NCBI GenBank assembly: GCA_019637105.1
Contig: JAHBWF010000046.1
Span: 1 to 46,386, forward strand
DNA length: 46,386 nucleotides
Origin: Labilithrix sp.
GTDB lineage: Bacteria; Myxococcota_A; Polyangia; Polyangiales; Polyangiaceae
Direction: 5' to 3'
Under the pieces are notes generated by a model, which was not told the origin of the DNA, made no database searches, and saw only the letters and a list, made by a program, of their open reading frames with translations. The translations under genes and the position numbers were made by a program. Below are positions 24,511-43,571 of the stretch, piece after piece (positions within the stretch are counted from its first letter, which is position 1; each line of letters opens with the position of its first letter).

Positions 24511-25716
24511 ATGAGCGCCGCCTTCATCCCGTTCCTCTACGAGCTCCGCGCGCGCAAGGTGAAGGTCGGAGCGCAGGAGGCGACGACCCTCGCCAAGGCG
24601 CTCGTGATGGGCCTCCACGAGAGCTCGCTCGACGGCTTCTACCACCTGGCCCGCGCCATCTGCGTGCACCGCGAGAGCGACCTCGACAAGTTCGACGAGG
24701 CGTTCCTCGCCCACTTCCGCGGGATCGAGACGAAGAACCTCGAGCTGATCGACGAGCTCGAGGCGTGGCTCGCGGATCCCGCCCACAGGAAGGAGCTCTC
24801 GGCCGAGGATCTCGCCGCGCTCCAGGCGCTCGACATGGCCGAGCTGAAGCGGATGTTCGAGGAGCGGATGAAGGAGCAGAAGGGCCGCCACCAGGGCGGC
24901 AGCCGCTGGATCGGCACCGGCGGCACGAGCCCCTTCGGCGCGCACGGCCAGCACCCTTCGGGCCTCCGCGTGGGACAGCAAGGCGGCGGACGGAGCGCGA
25001 TGGGCGTCGCGGACGCGCGGCGCTTCCGGCCGTACCGCTCGGACCTGCTGCTCGACGTCCGGCAGATCGAGGTCGCGCTCCGCAAGCTCCGCGCGTTCCA
25101 GCGCGAGGGGCAGCCGGACGAGCTCGATCTCGACGCGACCATCGACGCGACGGCGAAGAACGCCGGCGAGCTCGAGATCGTCGTCCGGCCGCCGCGCAAG
25201 TCGAACGTCCGCGTGCTCCTCTTGATGGACGTCGGCGGATCGATGGATCCGCACATCGAGATGGTCTCGCGCCTCTTCTCCGCCGCGAAGCGCGCGTCGA
25301 ACATCCGCTCGCTCAAGACGTACTACTTCCACAACTGCGTGTACGCGCGCGTCTACGAGACCGAGCGCTTCAGCGATCCGGTGCGCGTGGACGACGTGCT
25401 CCACGAGCTCGGGCCGGAGTGGAAGCTCGTCGTCGTCGGCGACGCGGCGATGCACCCGGCGGAGCTGCTCGGGCAGGGCGACTACGAGTTCTACGCGACG
25501 GGGCAGGCGGGAGAGCCGACGACCGGCCACAAGGTGCTCGCCAAGCTCGCCGATCACTTCCGTCGCTCGGTGTGGCTGAACCCGGATCCGCCGAACTACT
25601 GGCGCGGCGGGACCGCCGAGGAGATCGCGAAGCTCTTCTCCATGCACCACCTGACGCTCGAGGGGCTCGGCGAGGCCATCAAGCACCTGTCCAAGGGAGA
25701 CGTCCGCAAACGCTGA
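24511..25716 (+). CDS. CoxE-type VWA-domain protein
   Basis: A 401-residue cytosolic protein. The N-terminal helical region (IPFLYELRARKVKV) and the C-terminal von Willebrand A domain with MIDAS motif MDVGGSM (Asp240, Gly242, Ser244) match the CoxE-like/DUF58-related group, which works with MoxR AAA+ ATPases in metal insertion or protein maturation. No MoxR gene is in the window. Residues 120-160 are a Gly/His-rich linker. The C-terminal YWRGGTAEEIAKLFSMHHLT is typical. It follows the transglutaminase gene by 29 bp and may share its transcript. Confidence 0.85.
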   Translation: MSAAFIPFLYELRARKVKVGAQEATTLAKALVMGLHESSLDGFYHLARAICVHRESDLDKFDEAFLAHFRGIETKNLELIDELEAWLADPAHRKELSAEDLAALQALDMAELKRMFEERMKEQKGRHQGGSRWIGTGGTSPFGAHGQHPSGLRVGQQGGGRSAMGVADARRFRPYRSDLLLDVRQIEVALRKLRAFQREGQPDELDLDATIDATAKNAGELEIVVRPPRKSNVRVLLLMDVGGSMDPHIEMVSRLFSAAKRASNIRSLKTYYFHNCVYARVYETERFSDPVRVDDVLHELGPEWKLVVVGDAAMHPAELLGQGDYEFYATGQAGEPTTGHKVLAKLADHFRRSVWLNPDPPNYWRGGTAEEIAKLFSMHHLTLEGLGEAIKHLSKGDVRKR

Positions 25717-29688: not shown

Positions 29689-29722
29689 GGCGCAGACGCG
29701 ACGAAGGCGCAGACGCGACGAA
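29689..29722. repeat. Two perfect tandem 17-bp units
   Basis: GGCGCAGACGCGACGAA occurs at 29689-29705 and again at 29706-29722 without a mismatch. It abuts the hairpin downstream of rpsI. Confidence 0.8.
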
Positions 29723-29751
29723 GGCCGCCCACCGCGAGGTGACCGGCCTTC
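29720..29751 (-). terminator. Hairpin at the end of the rplM-rpsI transcript
   Basis: GAAGGCCG and CGGCCTTC form the outer 8-bp stem; CACC, GCGA and GGTG make the inner stem with a GNRA-type loop on the plus strand. It lies 32 nt past the rpsI stop. No U-tract; it may act in both directions. Confidence 0.55.
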
Positions 29752-29783
29752 GAAAGCGTGCGCGGCTCGCGCGCGGCGCGGGC

Positions 29784-30182
29784 TCAGCGCTTGGAGTACT
29801 GGAAGCGCTTGCGGGCGCCCGGCTGGCCGTACTTCTTGCGCTCCTTCTTGCGGGCGTCGCGCGTGAGGAAGCCGGCGCGCTTGAGGACGCTGCGCTTCTC
29901 CGGATCCATCGTGATGAGCGCGCGGGAGATGCCGTGGCGCATGGCCTCGGCCTGGGCCGAGTGACCGCCGCCGCGGACCGTCGCCCAGACGTCGAACTGG
30001 TCGGTGGCCTCGATGAGCTCGAGCGCCTGCTTCATGACCATGATCGAGGTCTCGCGCTCGAAGTACTGGTCGGCGGGGCGGTCGTTGACGATGACCTGGC
30101 CCGAGCCGGCCGAGAGCCACACGCGGGCGATGGCCGTCTTGCGCTTGCCGGTGGCGTACGTGCGATTGGAGGCGGTGCTCAT
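29784..30182 (-). CDS. rpsI: 30S ribosomal protein uS9
   Basis: A 132-residue ribosomal protein with standard uS9 blocks: [48 protein letters not shown] and the conserved basic C-terminus [17 protein letters not shown], whose tail reaches the P-site tRNA. The length is normal. It follows rplM by 40 bp, the conserved uL13-uS9 pair, and is co-transcribed from the promoter ahead of rplM. Confidence 0.98.
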
Positions 30183-30222
30183 CGTCTTTCCTTGCTACGC
30201 GGGCCCAGCGGCCACGTCTTCC

Positions 30223-31483: not shown

Positions 31484-31512
31484 TTGAACTCGAGATATTT
31501 CGCACGTAAAAG
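31484..31512 (+). promoter_or_regulatory. Promoter of the acyl-CoA dehydrogenase genes (leaderless type)
   Basis: TTGAAC (31484-31489), 17 nt, TAAAAG (31507-31512), then 6 nt to ATG 31519. This is the best-defined case of a full -35/-10 pair placed so that transcription would start at the start codon. Confidence 0.65.
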
Positions 31513-31518
31513 ATTCTC

Positions 31519-32742
31519 ATGATCAGCTTCCAGCCGACGGAGGATCAGGGGCTCATGGTGGAGTCGGTCGCGCAGTTCGCGCGCGCCCTCCGCGCGAAGA
31601 TCCGCGACAACGAGAAGGCGCGCGAGCTGCCCGAGGCCGTCCGGAAGACGGCGCACGAGCTCGGGCTCGGGCTCGTCGCGCTCCCCGAGTCCCTCGGCGG
31701 CGCCGGCCTCGGGCTCACCACCGCGGTGCTGCTCGACGAGGAGCTCGCCTGGGGCGATCCGGCCGCCCCGTTCGCGCTGGGCGGCCCGGGCGCGTTCGGC
31801 CTCGCCGTCGCGGAGCTCGGCACCGAGGAGCAGGCCCGGGCCGCGCTGGCCCCGTTCACCGCGGAGGGCGCGCACGGGCGCTTCGGGGCGGTCGCGTGGG
31901 GCGAGCGGAGGCCGAACGCCGAGCGGCCGGGGCTCTCGACGACCGCGACGAAGAAGGGCGACGGCTGGCAGCTCGACGGCGCGAAGGCCTACGTGCTGAA
32001 CGCCGATCGCGCCGAGCACTTCGTCGTCTTCGCCCAGGTCGACCCGAGCGCCGGCTGGCGCGGCCTCGGCGCGTTCCTCGTCGATCGCGGCGCGGCGGGG
32101 CTGACGGTGACCGAGCGCGCCGTGACGCTCGGCCTCGACGCCGCGAGCTTCGGCGGGCTCGCGCTCTCCGGCGTCGTGGTGCCCGCGGCGGCGCGGCTGA
32201 CCGGCGGCGCCGACTTCGACGCGGCCCTCGTGCGGTTCTTCGCGAAGAACGCGCTGCTCGTCGCCGCGCGCGGCGTCGGCCTGTCGCGCGCCGCGTTCGA
32301 GGTGACGCGCGAGTACGTCGACACGCGGAGGGCGTTCGGCAAGCCGATCGGTCATTTCCAGGCGGTCGCGTTCACCGTCGCCGACCGCGCGATGGACGTC
32401 GACGCGAGCCGCGGGCTCGTGTGGCGCGCGGCGGCCGCGTGGGACGCCCTCGCGCGCGGCGAAGGGAGCGAAGCGGACGCGCTGCTGCTGACGGCGCAGG
32501 CCGTCGCGTTCGGCCACGAGGCGGCGATGCGCTGCGGGGACGACGGCGTTCAGCTCCACGGCGGCGCCGGCTTCATGCGCGACTACCCCGTCGAGAAGCT
32601 GATGCGCGACGCGAAGCAGATCGGCCTCACCGGCATGACCGCGGAGCAAGCCGATCAGCTCGCGGCGGCGATCACGCTCGGCGCGCCGCTCGATCCGGGG
32701 CTCGTGCTCCCCACCCCCGAGACGCAGAACGCGTTCGTCTGA
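31519..32742 (+). CDS. Acyl-CoA dehydrogenase-like protein, catalytic Glu not evident
   Basis: A 407-residue cytosolic flavoprotein-family member. N-terminal helices, a mid beta-domain (GWQLDGAKAYVLNA, FLVDRGAAGLTV) and a C-terminal helical domain (TRRAFGKPIGHFQAVAFTVADRAMD, GDDGVQLHGGAGFMRDYPVEKLMRDA) follow the family order. Where most members have YEGTxEI with the catalytic Glu, this one reads LTGMTAEQAD (Gly372), so the base is absent from its usual place. The next gene keeps EGT. Paired dehydrogenases of this kind form alpha2beta2 heteromers in mycobacteria, with the base in only one subunit. A non-catalytic partner role is inferred. Confidence 0.85.
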   Translation: MISFQPTEDQGLMVESVAQFARALRAKIRDNEKARELPEAVRKTAHELGLGLVALPESLGGAGLGLTTAVLLDEELAWGDPAAPFALGGPGAFGLAVAELGTEEQARAALAPFTAEGAHGRFGAVAWGERRPNAERPGLSTTATKKGDGWQLDGAKAYVLNADRAEHFVVFAQVDPSAGWRGLGAFLVDRGAAGLTVTERAVTLGLDAASFGGLALSGVVVPAAARLTGGADFDAALVRFFAKNALLVAARGVGLSRAAFEVTREYVDTRRAFGKPIGHFQAVAFTVADRAMDVDASRGLVWRAAAAWDALARGEGSEADALLLTAQAVAFGHEAAMRCGDDGVQLHGGAGFMRDYPVEKLMRDAKQIGLTGMTAEQADQLAAAITLGAPLDPGLVLPTPETQNAFV

Positions 32743-32761
32743 CGAAGTCCCCGCGCCTCGC

Positions 32762-32799
32762 CGCCCGCCCACGGAAGCAGCGCCCGCCCACGGAAGAAG
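32762..32799 (+). repeat. Tandem 19-bp duplication of the ribosome-binding region
   Basis: CGCCCGCCCACGGAAGCAG (32762-32780) is followed directly by a copy with one change (32781-32799). The second copy supplies the GGAAGAAG Shine-Dalgarno of the next gene. Confidence 0.7.
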
Positions 32800-32804
32800 A
32801 TGCC

Positions 32805-34056
32805 ATGACGATCGAGTTCTCGTTCAGCAAGAAGCACCTCGAGATGCGCGAGGGGATCCGCGGCCTCGCGAAGAGCGTCATCCGCCCGCAGGCGCTCGCG
32901 TGGGACCGCGCCGGCGGGATCCCGGAGGACTTCCTCCGGAACATGGCGCGGCTCGCGACGTCGATGGGCTCGAACGCGATGACGTCCGGCCTCGGCGACG
33001 AGTCCGACGGCGCGCGCGCGGACCTCGCCGACGCCGGCGATCGCAAGAAGAAGCTCGGCGCGAACCTGTTCGGCGTGCTCGCAGCCGAGGAGCTCTCGTG
33101 GGGCGATCCCGGCCTCTTGCTCTGCCTCCCCGGTCCTGGCCTCGGGGGCCCGCCGGTCCGCGCGAGCGGGACGCCGGAGCAGAAGAAGCGCTTCTTCTCG
33201 ATCTTCAAGGATCTGCACGACGACGGCGCGCCGCTCCAGTGGGGCGCCTACGGCCTGACCGAGCCCGCGGCGGGCAGCGACGTCGCCGGCATCCGCGCGA
33301 CGTGCCGCAAGGACGGCAAGCACTGGGTCCTCAACGGGCGCAAGTGCTACATCACGAACGGCGCGCGCGCGGCGTGGACGGTGATCTTCGCGACGGTCGA
33401 TCCGTCGCTCGGACGCGCCGGGCACCGCGCGTTCGTCGTCGAGAAGGGCACGCCCGGCTTCTCGCGCGGAGGCCCATCTTCTCCTCGATGCGTCCGACCG
33501 AGAAGCCGGGCGTGCCCTCCGAAGGTTCTGCCGCGTCCCCGAGGAAAACCTGCTCGGCGGCGAGGAGAGGTACGTCTCGAAGGAGGGCTTCATGACCGCC
33601 ATGAAGACCTTCGACAACACGCGGCCCCTCGTCGGCGCGATGGCGCTCGGCATCGGCCGCGCCGCGTACGAGTACACCTGCGAGTTCGTGAAGAAGAACT
33701 ACGTGCTGTCGCGCCCCGTCCCGCGCTACGCCGCGATCGCCGAGCGCCTCGCGCGCGTCGGCCGCGGCCTCGAGGCCGCGCGCACGCTCACCTGGCGCGC
33801 CGCGTGGCTGGCCGACGAGGGCGAGCCGAACGCGAAGGAGGCGAGCATGTCGAAGGCGATGGCGGGTCAGGCCGCCATCCGGGCGTGCATCGAGGCGATC
33901 GAGATCTGCGGCGCGGAGGGCTCGATCGCGAAGGACCACCAGCTCCTCGAGAAGTGGTTCCGCGACATCAAGGTCTACGACATCTTCGAAGGCACCGGGC
34001 AGATCCAGCGCATCGTCATCTCGAAGCGGCTGATCTCGGACCTCAAGGCGTTCTGA
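32805..34056 (+). pseudogene. Acyl-CoA dehydrogenase disrupted by a local inverted duplication
   Basis: The first part (32805-33464) encodes a normal N-terminal half: SFSKKHLEMREGIRGLAK, GLTEPAAGSDVAGIRATC, GRKCYITNGARAAWTV and VVEKGTPGFS. The last part (33520-34056), in the +1 frame, resumes with CRVPEENLLGGEERYVSKEG and includes the catalytic EGT (VYDIFEGTGQIQR). Between them 33465-33519 should encode something like VGRIEEKMGLRA plus about ten more residues, but those bases are present only as the reverse complement (33465-33498), followed by a reverse-complement copy of the GTPGFS codons. The total length departs from a multiple of three by one base. It may be a true lesion or an assembly fault. 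Confidence 0.85.
33445..33518. repeat. Perfect 20-bp inverted repeat enclosing an inverted coding segment
   Basis: AGGGCACGCCCGGCTTCTCG (33445-33464) and its exact complement (33499-33518) flank 34 nt. Read on the minus strand the enclosed bases give GTPGFSVGRIEEKMGLRA, exactly the protein expected on the plus strand. Confidence 0.9.
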
Positions 34057-34127
34057 CGCGACGAAGCACGCCGGCGCTCGAAGCCCGGAGAGCTCCTCGA
34101 GCGCCGCGGCGGCGTCCTCGGCGGACC

Positions 34128-34170
34128 GACGCCCCCGAGGCGCGCGAGCGATCTCGCGCCTCGGGGCGTC
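34128..34170. terminator. Long hairpin downstream of the acyl-CoA dehydrogenase genes
   Basis: The left arm 34128-34148 (GACGCCCCCGAGGCGCGCGA...) pairs with 34153-34170 (CTCGCGCCTCGGGGCGTC) over 18 bp, with one C and one CG bulged and a CGAT loop. No U-tract. Confidence 0.5.
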
Positions 34171-34178
34171 GTCGCGCC

Positions 34179-34202
34179 GGAGGTGGGGCGCACCCCACCT
34201 CC
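34179..34202. terminator. 10-bp perfect hairpin
   Basis: GGAGGTGGGG and CCCCACCTCC flank CGCA. It stands 9 nt from the previous hairpin, and the pair separates the plus-strand dehydrogenases from the minus-strand cysteine-rich remnant. Confidence 0.55.
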
Positions 34203-34679
34203 GTTGCTCCCGCAGAACGCGACGCACGTGTTCGTCGGGTCGCCCTCGGTGCAGAGCCCCTGACACGCGCCGAGCCCCTGGAACCCGACGAAGCACTCCG
34301 CCGGCCCCGCGGCCGCCTTCGCCTTGCAGGTGCCGGCGTCGCAGTCGTTCCCCGGCTTGCAGGCGCCGATGCCCGAGCAGGCGTCGCCGACGTCGCCGGG
34401 CGGCGCGTCGGAGCAGACGTCGTTCAGGCAGATCTGCCCCGGCGCGCACGGGGTGCCCCCCGCGCAGCTCCCGTCCTTCGGAGCGAACGCCTTGCAGGTG
34501 CCCGCGTCGCCGCTCCCGTTCGGCGAGCAGTACGCGCCGTCCACGCAGATCGGGTGATTCTTGCTCGGGATCCCGTTCCAGCAGGGGCCGTCGACGGCGC
34601 CGGGGGGCTTGCACGTCCCCGGCGTCGACGGACGCGGAGCCGCACCGAGCGCGACTCGCCGGCGCCGCCGAGGTCCGCG
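34200..34679 (-). pseudogene. Remnant of a cysteine-rich secreted protein
   Basis: One minus-strand frame carries a clear disulphide-rich sequence: PGTCKPPGAVDGPCW, NHPICVDGAYCSP, GTCKAFAPKDGSC, APGQICLNDVCSD, GDACSGIGACKPGNDC and TNTCVAFCGSNGGG. It has no start codon or signal peptide (a TGA at 34680-34682 closes the frame just upstream). A plausible earlier part (SPEVDVTRDADLGGAGESRS) lies in another frame at about 34640-34720. Downstream it runs on without a natural stop into the hairpins. A decayed or frameshifted gene is most likely; a real small gene starting at GTG 34544 is possible but less likely. Confidence 0.5.
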
Positions 34680-34745
34680 TCACGCGTGACGTCGACCTCC
34701 GGTGACGCCGCGCGATCGCGCCCGGCGCGCTCGAGCGCTCAGGGC

Positions 34746-35234
34746 TCAGGACCGATAGGCCGCCTCGAGCGCCGCGACGTCGAGCTTGATCATCTTGAGC
34801 ATCGCGTCGGTGACCCGCTTCGATCGGACCGGATCGCGATCGCTCATCAGCTCGTCCATCACCGCCGGGACGATCTGCCAGCGCAGCCCGAACTTGTCGA
34901 TGAGCCAACCGCACGCCTGCGCCTTGCCGCCGCCCTCGAGGAGCGCGTTCCAGTAGCGATCGAGCTCGGCCTGATCGTCGCACGAGACGACGATCGAGAC
35001 GGCGTCGTTGAACTCGTGGTGGGGACCGGCGCTGATGGCCTGGAAGCGCTGCCCGAAGAGCGTGAAGTCCACGACCTTCACCGAGCCCGCGGGCCCGCTC
35101 GGCGAGTCGCTCTGCAGCGGCGTCACGCGGTCGACGCGCGAGCCCGGGAAGATGGAAGCGTAGAAGCGCGCCGCCTCCTCGGCCTCTTTCGCGAACCACA
35201 GGTGCGTGAAGATCTTCGAGCCGTTCAACGTCAT
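34746..35234 (-). CDS. PhnB-like VOC-superfamily protein
   Basis: A 162-residue cytosolic protein of the 3-demethylubiquinone-9 3-methyltransferase/PhnB-like group (PF06983): KIFTHLWFAKEAEEAARFYASIFPGS, SVKVVDFTLFGQRFQAISAGPHHEFNDAVSIVVSC and KFGLRWQIVPAVMDEL. Several members bind no metal and the function is unclear. AGGAGG lies 8 nt before the ATG. The 275 bp upstream (35235-35509) hold an AT-richer patch near 35370-35400 that may be its promoter; I see no gene there. Confidence 0.85.
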   Translation of the reverse strand: MTLNGSKIFTHLWFAKEAEEAARFYASIFPGSRVDRVTPLQSDSPSGPAGSVKVVDFTLFGQRFQAISAGPHHEFNDAVSIVVSCDDQAELDRYWNALLEGGGKAQACGWLIDKFGLRWQIVPAVMDELMSDRDPVRSKRVTDAMLKMIKLDVAALEAAYRS

Positions 35235-35509
35235 GGTCGTGCCTCCTGGTGAGCGACGGCTCGAGCGCCGCCGCGCCGCCGCGGGAAGGGCGGCGTCCGA
35301 GAGACGACGAACGACCCCGGCCTCGATCGACACGCCCGCTCGAAAATTTCGCGGGGTCGCACCTCGGTCGAATTGGCCATGCAATTTCGCTCGTTTATGA
35401 ACGACCACCGCTCCGCGGAGCGCATCCAACGCGAGCCTGCGCCGCGCACGCGCGCGGGCCGGAGGAGCCCTCGCGAAGCCGAGCGCGTCCGGCGCGAGCG
35501 CGCGCCGCG

Positions 35510-42248: not shown

Positions 42249-43571
42249 ATGAAGTCCGCCCACGTCGCCCTGCTCCTCGCCCTCGGTCTCGGCCTCTCCG
42301 CCTGCTCCGACTCGGAGTCCGACGCGGAGAAGGGGGCTGGAGAGAAGGTCGAGGTCGCGCGCTCCTCGCAGCAGCGCGACACGAACCCCGAGCTCACCGA
42401 CGCGGAGCGCGCGAGCTTCGCCGCGAGCCAGGCGACGTTCGCCGTCGACCTCTACCGCGCGGTGGCCGAGGATCCGGACCACGCGGGCAAGGACCTCTTC
42501 CTCTCGCCGCACAGCGTGTCGACCGCCCTCGCGATGACCTACGCGGGCGCGCGCGGCGAGAACGCCGCCGAGATGCGCGAGGCGCTCCGCTTCGATCTCC
42601 CGGACGACCGGATCCACGTGGCGTTCAACGCGCTCGATCTCGCGCTGGAGAGCCGCGGAGAGGGCGCCGACGGCGCCGACGGCGAGCCGTTCCGCCTGAG
42701 CGTCACCAACTCGATCTGGGGCCAGAAGGGCGCGCCGTTCGAGGCGCCGTACCTCGACACGCTCGCGCGGAACTACGGCGCCGGCCTGAACCTCGTCGAC
42801 TTCGTCAACGAGACGGAGGCCTCGCGCCGGGCGATCAACGCGTGGGTCGAGGAGCAGACGGAGAAGCGCATCAAGGACCTCCTGCCCAGCGGCGCCATCC
42901 GGCCGACCACCCGCCTCGTGCTCACCAACGCCGTCTACTTCAACGCGGCGTGGTCGACGCCGTTCGAGCCGAGCCTGACCAGGGCGGAGCCCTTCACGAA
43001 GATCGACGGGGCGAGCACCGACGTGCAGATGATGGTGAGCTCGGAGAGCCGCCGCTACGCGCGCGGCGACGGCTACGAGGCGGTGGAGCTGCCGTACCAG
43101 GGCTACGAGCTCTCGATGCTCGTCATCGCCCCGGAGGTCGGCTCCTTCGCGACGTTCGAGTCCGCGCTCACCGGCGGAAAGGTGCTCGACATCCTCGCCG
43201 GCCTCGAGCAAAAGGAGGTGCTCTTGCACTTCCCGAAGCTCGAGATCGAGATGGACGCGCCGATCAGCCTCGTCGATCCGCTCAAATCGCTCGGGATGGT
43301 GCAGGCCTTCGACGGCGGCGACTTCAGCGGGATCAGCGCGACGATGCCGCTCTCCGTCTCCGACGTCCTCCACAAGACGTTCCTCAAGATCGACGAGAAG
43401 GGGACCGAGGCGGCCGCGGCTACGGCGGTCGTCTTCGACGAGTCGGCCGCGGCCGACCCGCCGGAGTCGATCGAGGTGAAGGTCGACCGGCCGTTCTTCA
43501 CCGCGATCGTGGATCGGCAGACGAAGGCGATCGTCTTCTTCGGACGCATCCTCGAGCCGCGCGTGAAGTGA
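42249..43571 (+). CDS. Serpin-family protease inhibitor lipoprotein
   Basis: A 440-residue lipoprotein with its lipobox Cys at 19 (LGLSAC). The fold blocks are visible: FAVDLYRAVAED, DLFLSPHSVSTALAMTYAGARG, LTNAVYFNAAWSTPF and VDRPFFTAIVDRQTKAIVFFGRILEP. The reactive-centre loop hinge reads EKGTEAAAATA (Glu383 = P17), the Ala-rich pattern of inhibitory serpins, and counting from it gives Ser399-Ala400 as the P1-P1' bond, suggesting elastase-like targets. It would act at the surface or periplasm, perhaps against envelope or prey proteases. Confidence 0.93.
   Translation: MKSAHVALLLALGLGLSACSDSESDAEKGAGEKVEVARSSQQRDTNPELTDAERASFAASQATFAVDLYRAVAEDPDHAGKDLFLSPHSVSTALAMTYAGARGENAAEMREALRFDLPDDRIHVAFNALDLALESRGEGADGADGEPFRLSVTNSIWGQKGAPFEAPYLDTLARNYGAGLNLVDFVNETEASRRAINAWVEEQTEKRIKDLLPSGAIRPTTRLVLTNAVYFNAAWSTPFEPSLTRAEPFTKIDGASTDVQMMVSSESRRYARGDGYEAVELPYQGYELSMLVIAPEVGSFATFESALTGGKVLDILAGLEQKEVLLHFPKLEIEMDAPISLVDPLKSLGMVQAFDGGDFSGISATMPLSVSDVLHKTFLKIDEKGTEAAAATAVVFDESAAADPPESIEVKVDRPFFTAIVDRQTKAIVFFGRILEPRVK

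What the first reader, a model, noticed from the sequence alone, without database searches (positions are those of the whole stretch)
33445..33518. Fold-back inversion inside an acyl-CoA dehydrogenase gene
The plus strand encodes VVEKGTPGFS, then loses sense, then resumes in another frame with CRVPEENLL. The missing residues VGRIEEKMGLRA are present, but only on the minus strand between two perfect 20-bp inverted copies. The arrangement A-B'-A' replaces A-B-C: 64 nt lie between the GTPGFS and CRVP codons where about 66 are expected. This is what a template-switch (quasi-palindrome) mutation should leave, and it is far too tidy for random decay. A phase switch is less likely because flipping the 34 bp does not restore the frame. 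A chimeric assembly is the main alternative.
Basis: partly seen in the sequence, partly recalled or inferred. Interest (0 to 1): 0.78.

Follow-up and report, generated by a model that had tools for sequence, protein, structure and literature searches.

The report
Gene broken by template-switch inversion
A metabolic gene in a bacterium's draft genome is broken because a short stretch appears to have been copied backwards from the opposite DNA strand, a known kind of copying accident that is very clean here but still needs raw reads to rule out an assembly error.

Summary
In an acyl-CoA dehydrogenase gene (32805-34056, +), 33445-33518 is a perfect 20-bp inverted repeat around 34 nt. The 58 nt at 33461-33518 are the reverse complement of the orthologue: 57/58 against the nearest relative, whose gene is intact. 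All 11 relatives aligned are forward and in frame with 66 nt here; the window has 64. The forward segment was not found elsewhere in the assembly, nor the first junction in the 108 other family genomes searched. The rest of the gene shows no decay: no indels against G004 outside the lesion, and 12 of 13 own-branch codon changes are synonymous.

Best explanation: one recent short-range template switch at a 4-nt match (CTCG/CGAG), of the inter-strand order, which replaced 22 codons and shifted the frame. A two-step route (fold-back duplication, then spacer flip) gives the same sequence. The strict quasi-palindrome label does not fit: relatives show only 4 nt of inverted complementarity at the switch point. 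A 10-nt filler at the second junction stays unexplained. A library or assembly chimera is the main rival; no reads were available. A known kind of mutation and a legible example, of modest interest.

The parts
32805..33464 (+). 5' part of the acyl-CoA dehydrogenase gene, 220 codons, in frame from ATG to GTPGFS
   Evidence: frame; Pfam Acyl-CoA_dh_N and Acyl-CoA_dh_M; 98% aa identity to G004
33445..33464 (+). arm A, original 20 nt, ends with the CTCG switch site
33461..33518 (-). inverted patch: reverse complement of 58 nt of the orthologue (A + B + CGAG); 33461-33464 is the 4-nt microhomology shared with the forward sequence
   Evidence: inverted BLAST match 98.3% to G004, 96.6% to G007, 94.8% to G003; 1 and 2 mismatches to G004 and G007
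33465..33498 (-). B', inverted 34 nt that encodes VGRIEEKMGLR(A) on the minus strand
33499..33518 (-). A', new second copy of A in inverted orientation
33519..33528 (.). 10-nt junction filler CCGAAGGTTC; best nearby match is the inverted sequence just downstream with a 2-nt gap (suggestive only)
   Evidence: score reached by 1.6-3.0% of shuffles
33529..34056 (+). 3' part of the gene, CRVPEENLL to stop, intact, in a displaced frame
   Evidence: frame; Pfam Acyl-CoA_dh_1; 98% aa identity to G004 and to G007

Best explanation
A single, recent, short-range template switch during DNA synthesis. In + strand terms: copying reached the end of arm A (33464), the nascent end paired through CTCG with the opposite strand at CGAG, 34 nt ahead in the ancestral sequence, copied 54 further nt backwards (B' and A') to the start of A, and then returned to the normal template at about TGCCGC (33529), leaving 10 nt of uncertain origin at the return point. 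Ordered on the ancestral sequence the four switch points read 3-1-2-4 (assigned by hand), so the landing point lies ahead of the departure point: this needs the other strand of the fork, not the nascent strand itself, and the mirror reading from the other side needs it too. The event replaces 66 nt (22 codons of the middle domain) by 64 nt and shifts the frame, so the full-length enzyme cannot be made from this sequence. Shown: inversion, intact forward form in relatives, absence elsewhere in what was searched, microhomology, a single lesion in the gene. Inferred: the replication mechanism, the inter-strand route, loss of activity.
For: 58-nt inverted match of 98.3% inside a colinear match to the nearest relative. 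Of 13 pieces of relatives' contigs compared with the window, the four that cover this gene (one each of G004, G007, G003, G010) all show the inverted piece; in the one G004 piece that aligned colinearly it is the only one. Derived state: 11 of 11 relatives aligned are intact with 66 nt, and the junction is in 0 of 108 other family genomes. Forward B was not found in the own assembly (a degenerate pattern without mismatches). The linear alignment of the 66 and 64 nt scores 4.0 against a shuffled mean of -1.7, sd 3.2, maximum 9.5, whereas the inverted patch has one mismatch. Outside 33471-33523 the gene has no indel against G004, and polarised by G007 its own branch has 12 synonymous and 1 non-synonymous codon changes; the G004 branch has 22 and 4. 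The event class, its four-point description and the rule that point 2 ahead of point 1 excludes intra-strand switching are in PMC7954356 (passages).
Against: No reads and no second isolate: reality in cells is not shown. The 10-nt filler is not explained by one clean switch and needs a further slip, a second inverted template (weak support) or extra mutations. The lack of decay elsewhere in the gene also fits an assembly error. The final sequence cannot tell one event from two.
Confidence: 0.55

Rival explanations
1. Sequencing-library or assembly chimera. A fold-back molecule (end repair of single-stranded ends, whole-genome amplification, or branch errors in a short-read graph) was built into the consensus of this fragmented assembly; the cells carry the intact gene.
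For: The assembly is fragmented (334 contigs, 91.5% complete) and the records of its nearest named kin are MAGs. Library artefacts whose sequence between inverted repeats is inverted are described (PMC10908179, passages), and palindromic chimeras from whole-genome amplification too (PMC6218980, passages). The gene is otherwise under normal constraint.
Against: A fold-back gives one junction (upstream-A-B-A'-upstream'); here a second junction rejoins the correct downstream sequence within 74 nt at almost the right spacing. The sonication artefacts of PMC10908179 start from near-perfect natural inverted repeats; relatives have only 4 nt here. Long-looped hairpins are not rife in the assembly: one repeat with arm >=18 and loop >=15 in 1,995,896 bases sampled outside the window; but the sample is under a quarter of the assembly, and artefacts with other geometry were not looked for.
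Confidence: 0.22
2. Two steps: first an intra-strand fold-back primed by CGAG on CTCG copied A behind B (A-B-A'), then the spacer B flipped between the two new perfect arms by a later switch or recombination.
For: Yields exactly the same sequence; the priming match CTCG/CGAG fits a nascent-strand hairpin. Spacer inversion is documented in yeast genes, in nine of ten cases with arms that were perfect before (PMC8604942, passages).
Against: Needs two events where one suffices; no genome with the A-B-A' intermediate was seen (11 of 11 relatives aligned lack A').
Confidence: 0.17
3. Phase-variable invertible segment (inverton) inside the gene.
For: Perfect 20-bp inverted repeats around 34 nt resemble one in outline.
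Against: Neither orientation restores the frame (64 nt either way); the second arm is absent in the 11 relatives aligned; the ten other window ORFs scanned with Pfam include no recombinase (a small part of the 140 mechanical ORFs).
Confidence: 0.03
4. Ordinary pseudogene decay by independent indels and substitutions.
For: The frame is broken and the linear alignment has many gaps, five of them between 33471 and 33523.
Against: The linear alignment is within the range of shuffled sequence, while the inverted one has 57 of 58 identical; the gene outside has no indels against G004, and 1 of 13 own-branch codon changes is non-synonymous.
Confidence: 0.02

Closest known systems
Short-range template switch mutations, four-point model (Loytynoja and Goldman, recalled; PMC7954356, passages seen)
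   Same: A reverse-complement patch copied from nearby replaces original sequence between two switch points; creates a new perfect inverted repeat and a stable hairpin (-36.7 kcal/mol as DNA, z -5.4)
   Different: Here in a bacterium; an extra 10-nt filler at the return point; event order 3-1-2-4 assigned by hand, not with their pair HMM
Quasi-palindrome-associated mutations of E. coli and yeast (Ripley model; PMC7202029, abstract and part of the introduction seen)
   Same: Polymerase switches template at inverted complementarity and the product is a perfect inverted repeat
   Different: No imperfect inverted repeat of note existed before; the spacer is inverted as well, which points to inter-strand rather than nascent-strand copying
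Spacer inversion with arm homogenisation, REG2 of yeast (PMC8604942, passages seen)
   Same: Arm completed and spacer inverted together by inter-molecular switching, there from a 5-bp arm to a 16-bp arm
   Different: Here the spacer is 34 nt instead of 5, the arms are 20 bp from a 4-nt seed, and the frame is lost
Template-switch patterns in RNA genes, including inverted loops in bacterial RNA sequences (PMC8794818, passages seen)
   Same: Bacterial examples of an inverted loop explained by inter-strand switching; new hairpins made in one event
   Different: Those inverted loops are 7-8 nt at most in the passages seen; here 34 nt in a protein gene
Inverted-repeat library artefacts (PMC10908179, passages seen)
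   Same: Sequence between the arms is inverted relative to the reference
   Different: Those start from natural near-perfect repeats and show as soft-clipped read ends

Membership tests
Short-range template switch mutation | Patch matches the reverse complement of nearby ancestral sequence far better than the linear orthologue | tested here: met
Short-range template switch mutation | Direction known: ancestral form in outgroups | tested here: met
   11 of 11 relatives aligned, junction in 0 of 108 other genomes
Short-range template switch mutation | Clean return to the original template | tested here: inconclusive
   10-nt filler 33519-33528 with only a weak second inverted match
Short-range template switch mutation | Present in real DNA molecules (reads) | not testable with these tools
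Quasi-palindrome mutation | Pre-existing imperfect inverted repeat made perfect | tested here: not met
   relatives show only the 4-nt CTCG/CGAG match at the switch site (judged by eye on the aligned sequences)
Inverton (phase-variable segment) | One orientation gives a working gene | tested here: not met
   64 nt in both orientations against 66 nt; frame not restored
Inverton (phase-variable segment) | Inverted repeats kept in relatives | tested here: not met
   no second arm in 11 of 11 relatives aligned
Acyl-CoA dehydrogenase (gene before the lesion) | Pfam N-terminal, middle and C-terminal domains above cut-off | tested here: met
   on the two intact parts separately

The most novel reading that the evidence does not exclude
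A three-template event: after the 58-nt inverted patch, the polymerase also copied about 12 nt of the inverted sequence just downstream (CCGA..AGGTTC) before resuming, that is, serial template switching at one fork in a wild bacterium, leaving a new hairpin whose spacer could keep flipping.
Probability: 0.15. Interest if true: 0.4.

Novelty: new member of a known kind. Interest (0 to 1): 0.25.

Why it matters
It is a clear natural example, with direction fixed by intact relatives, of what looks like one copying accident that rewrites 22 codons and creates a 20-bp hairpin from a 4-nt match. If real, it shows that the inter-strand kind of event described in primates, in yeast genes and in short RNA loops (bacterial ones included) can also break a protein gene in a bacterium over tens of bases. 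If an artefact, it is a useful signature for screening apparent pseudogenes in draft genomes.

Tried and rejected
Looked for a second, intact copy in the own assembly: the next best match to the first part by score is 36% aa identical, further listed ones 40-41% over shorter stretches; the forward segment was not found. Looked for the same junction in the family: 1 of 109 genomes, the own one. Tested whether long hairpins are common in the assembly: in 1,995,896 bases (100 stretches, window not counted) 57 perfect repeats with arm >=14 and loop <=100, of these 35 with loop >=15; 15 with arm >=16 (5 with loop >=15); 6 with arm >=18 (1 with loop >=15). In 400,000 bases of four relatives 9 with arm >=14 (5 with loop >=15), 1 with arm >=16, the same one with arm >=18 and loop 93. 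The own sample is under a quarter of the 8.45 Mb assembly, and repeats across the ends of stretches are missed. Looked for other frame breaks near by: in the G004 piece aligned the other gaps lie at 31519 and 32487/32490 (one base each way) and 32750, at 29757-30206 and 30895, at 34061-34139 and 34512, at 35238-35301, and at 35495-35507 and 38989; most lie outside the two dehydrogenase genes and were not examined further. Looked for a source of the 10-nt filler: no exact match of 8 nt or more within 31501-35500, two of 7 nt; the best gapped match is inverted and downstream, not strong. Rfam: 0 matches in the window. PADLOC: 0 matches for the 7 ORFs given. Paper searches: (template switching) listed quasi-palindrome and reporter work in E. 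coli and the papers cited; (bacterial genomes, local inversion, pseudogene) listed one unrelated paper; (invertons) listed one and none. None of the entries listed is by its title or abstract start a case like this; the library lacks most subscription papers, so nothing is claimed about absence in print. PMC3411829 (spontaneous rearrangements in Salmonella, passages) did not bear on events of this size.

Considered and not pursued: structure prediction of the broken protein (would not decide anything); naming the substrate of the enzyme (all NCBIfam scores lie far below the cut-offs).

Full report
WHAT IS THERE. The window is contig C276 of an 8,454,228-base assembly in 334 contigs (91.5% complete, 2.08% contamination). 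By this gene its nearest named kin are Labilithrix sp. MAGs (98% and 95% aa identity) and other Myxococcales or Polyangiaceae MAGs (the own record is not named). At 32805-34056 (+) lies an acyl-CoA dehydrogenase gene, behind a second one at 31519-32742. The first 220 codons are in one frame from ATG 32805 to GTPGFS at 33464; the last part, from CRVPEENLL at 33529 to the stop at 34056, is in another. Pfam finds the N-terminal and middle domains in the first part and the C-terminal domain in the second.

THE REPEAT. 33445-33464 and 33499-33518 are perfectly complementary over 20 bp around 34 nt. Chance does not give this: the next longest arm in the window (loop <=60) is 13 bp, six first-order Markov versions of the window reach 15 bp at most, and 500,000 bases of order-2 Markov sequence gave five repeats with arm >=14 and none >=16. 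Real sequence of the same assembly has more: six repeats with arm >=18 in 1,995,896 bases, five with loops of 5-13 nt, several alike in sequence, and one with a loop of 68 nt. The single strand folds as DNA at -36.7 kcal/mol against a shuffled mean of -21.3 (z -5.4).

COMPARISON WITH RELATIVES. Of the 58 relatives searched with the two intact parts, I aligned the locus in 11: nine of the 12 same-genus genomes (the other three, G002, G009 and G011, gave only distant matches) and two more of the family. All 11 read through the site in frame, with exactly 66 nt between the two anchor codons and the peptide VGR(I/L)E(E/D)KMGLRASETAELV(L/F)E(D/E). The window has 64 nt. BLAST against the nearest relative (G004, 98% aa identity in both parts) gives the colinear match plus an inverted one of 58 nt at 98.3%, window 33461-33518; base by base there is 1 mismatch to G004 and there are 2 to G007. 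A linear alignment of the 66 and 64 nt scores within the range of shuffled sequence (4.0; shuffled mean -1.7, sd 3.2, maximum 9.5). So the window carries A, then the reverse complement of A+B+CGAG, then 10 nt, then the normal downstream sequence. The present order is the derived one.

JUNCTIONS. At the first junction the forward sequence ends in CTCG, and in the relatives the sequence just after B is CGAG, whose reverse complement is CTCG: a 4-nt match at which the end could have changed template. At the second junction stand 10 nt, CCGAAGGTTC, which fit neither the inverted patch nor the linear orthologue. Their best match within 150 nt on either side is the inverted strand just downstream, CCGA(GC)AGGTTC with a 2-nt gap; 1.6-1.7% of shuffled decamers do as well, 3% when 400 nt are allowed. 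That suggests a further switch, but it was found after looking and is no more than a hint.

MECHANISM. In the four-point description (PMC7954356, passages) the points fall on the ancestral sequence in the order 3-1-2-4, as I assign them by hand. The landing point 2 is ahead of the departure point 1, and by the rule given there the nascent strand cannot have been the template; read from the other end the order is 1-3-4-2, with the same consequence. So, as a single event, this is an inter-strand switch. The alternative is two steps: a nascent-strand fold-back primed by the same 4 nt gives A-B-A', and a later inversion of the spacer gives A-B'-A'. Spacer inversion together with growth of the arm from 5 to 16 bp is recorded in yeast REG2 (PMC8604942, passages). 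The sequence alone cannot choose; parsimony favours one event.

WHY NOT OTHERWISE. Not a phase switch: 64 nt in either orientation, and the second arm is missing in the relatives aligned. Not a second copy: a degenerate pattern of the forward segment is found in the own assembly once, on the minus strand of this very place; the next best match to the first part in the own genome is 36% identical. Not shared: the 31-nt first junction, with up to 3 mismatches, is in 1 of 109 family genomes, the own. Not slow decay: all indels of the gene against G004 lie between 33471 and 33523, and polarised by G007 the own branch has 12 synonymous and 1 non-synonymous codon changes, the G004 branch 22 and 4 (with G003 as outgroup the own branch has 11 and 1). 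Not strictly a quasi-palindrome mutation, since the relatives have no imperfect repeat at the switch point beyond 4 nt.

ARTEFACT. This is the serious rival. The absence of decay fits an assembly error as well as a young mutation. Against it: a fold-back molecule yields one junction, and here a second one rejoins the right downstream sequence with only 2 nt lost; long-looped hairpins are not rife in what I sampled of the assembly; and among 13 pieces of relatives' contigs compared with the window, the inverted piece at this place was seen in the four that cover it (L128, L129, L137, L143), with only two other, weaker inverted pieces inside colinear matches: 79% over 52 nt at 29718-29769 against G007 and 93% over 27 nt at 24738-24764 against G010. 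Library artefacts of similar look start from natural near-perfect repeats (PMC10908179, passages). Without reads I leave it at about one in five.

CONSEQUENCE. The 22 codons lost belong to the middle domain; translation from ATG 32805 would run out of frame to the stop at 35252 (frame of ORF 31896-35252). The C-terminal part could start at ATG 33592 but would lack the first two domains. Loss of activity is inferred, not tested.

VERDICT. It is a new example of a known kind of mutation, unusually legible, with an artefact not excluded.

Noticed in passing
L091 11352-11465 (G000:C1:111352-111465): Perfect 23-bp inverted repeat with 68-nt loop inside an open, Ala-rich frame upstream of what looks by eye like a flgD gene (name recalled, no family search); the only other sampled repeat in the assembly with arm >=18 and loop >=15. 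Could be a second, frame-keeping event or low-complexity chance.
   Followed up: partly
L116 14364-14421; L154 10814-10870; L150 13892-13944; L121 2990-3034; L100 13814-13872: Similar hairpins (GGGGAATCGCGAGGCCC type, loop 12-13 in four of the five) recur on several contigs of the own genome, as if a dispersed hairpin element or a common terminator; likeness judged by eye.
   Followed up: no
L135 17871-18019 (G007:C150): 28-bp perfect inverted repeat with 93-nt loop in a relative, not obviously inside a gene.
   Followed up: no
window 42249-43568 (+): Strong serpin family match (Pfam PF00079, E 1.8e-102) in a bacterial genome.
   Followed up: no
G005:C314:11164-11613: A relative has, besides its orthologue, a second C-terminal piece at 84% aa identity in a 150-aa open frame; contig end or duplicate not checked.
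   Followed up: no
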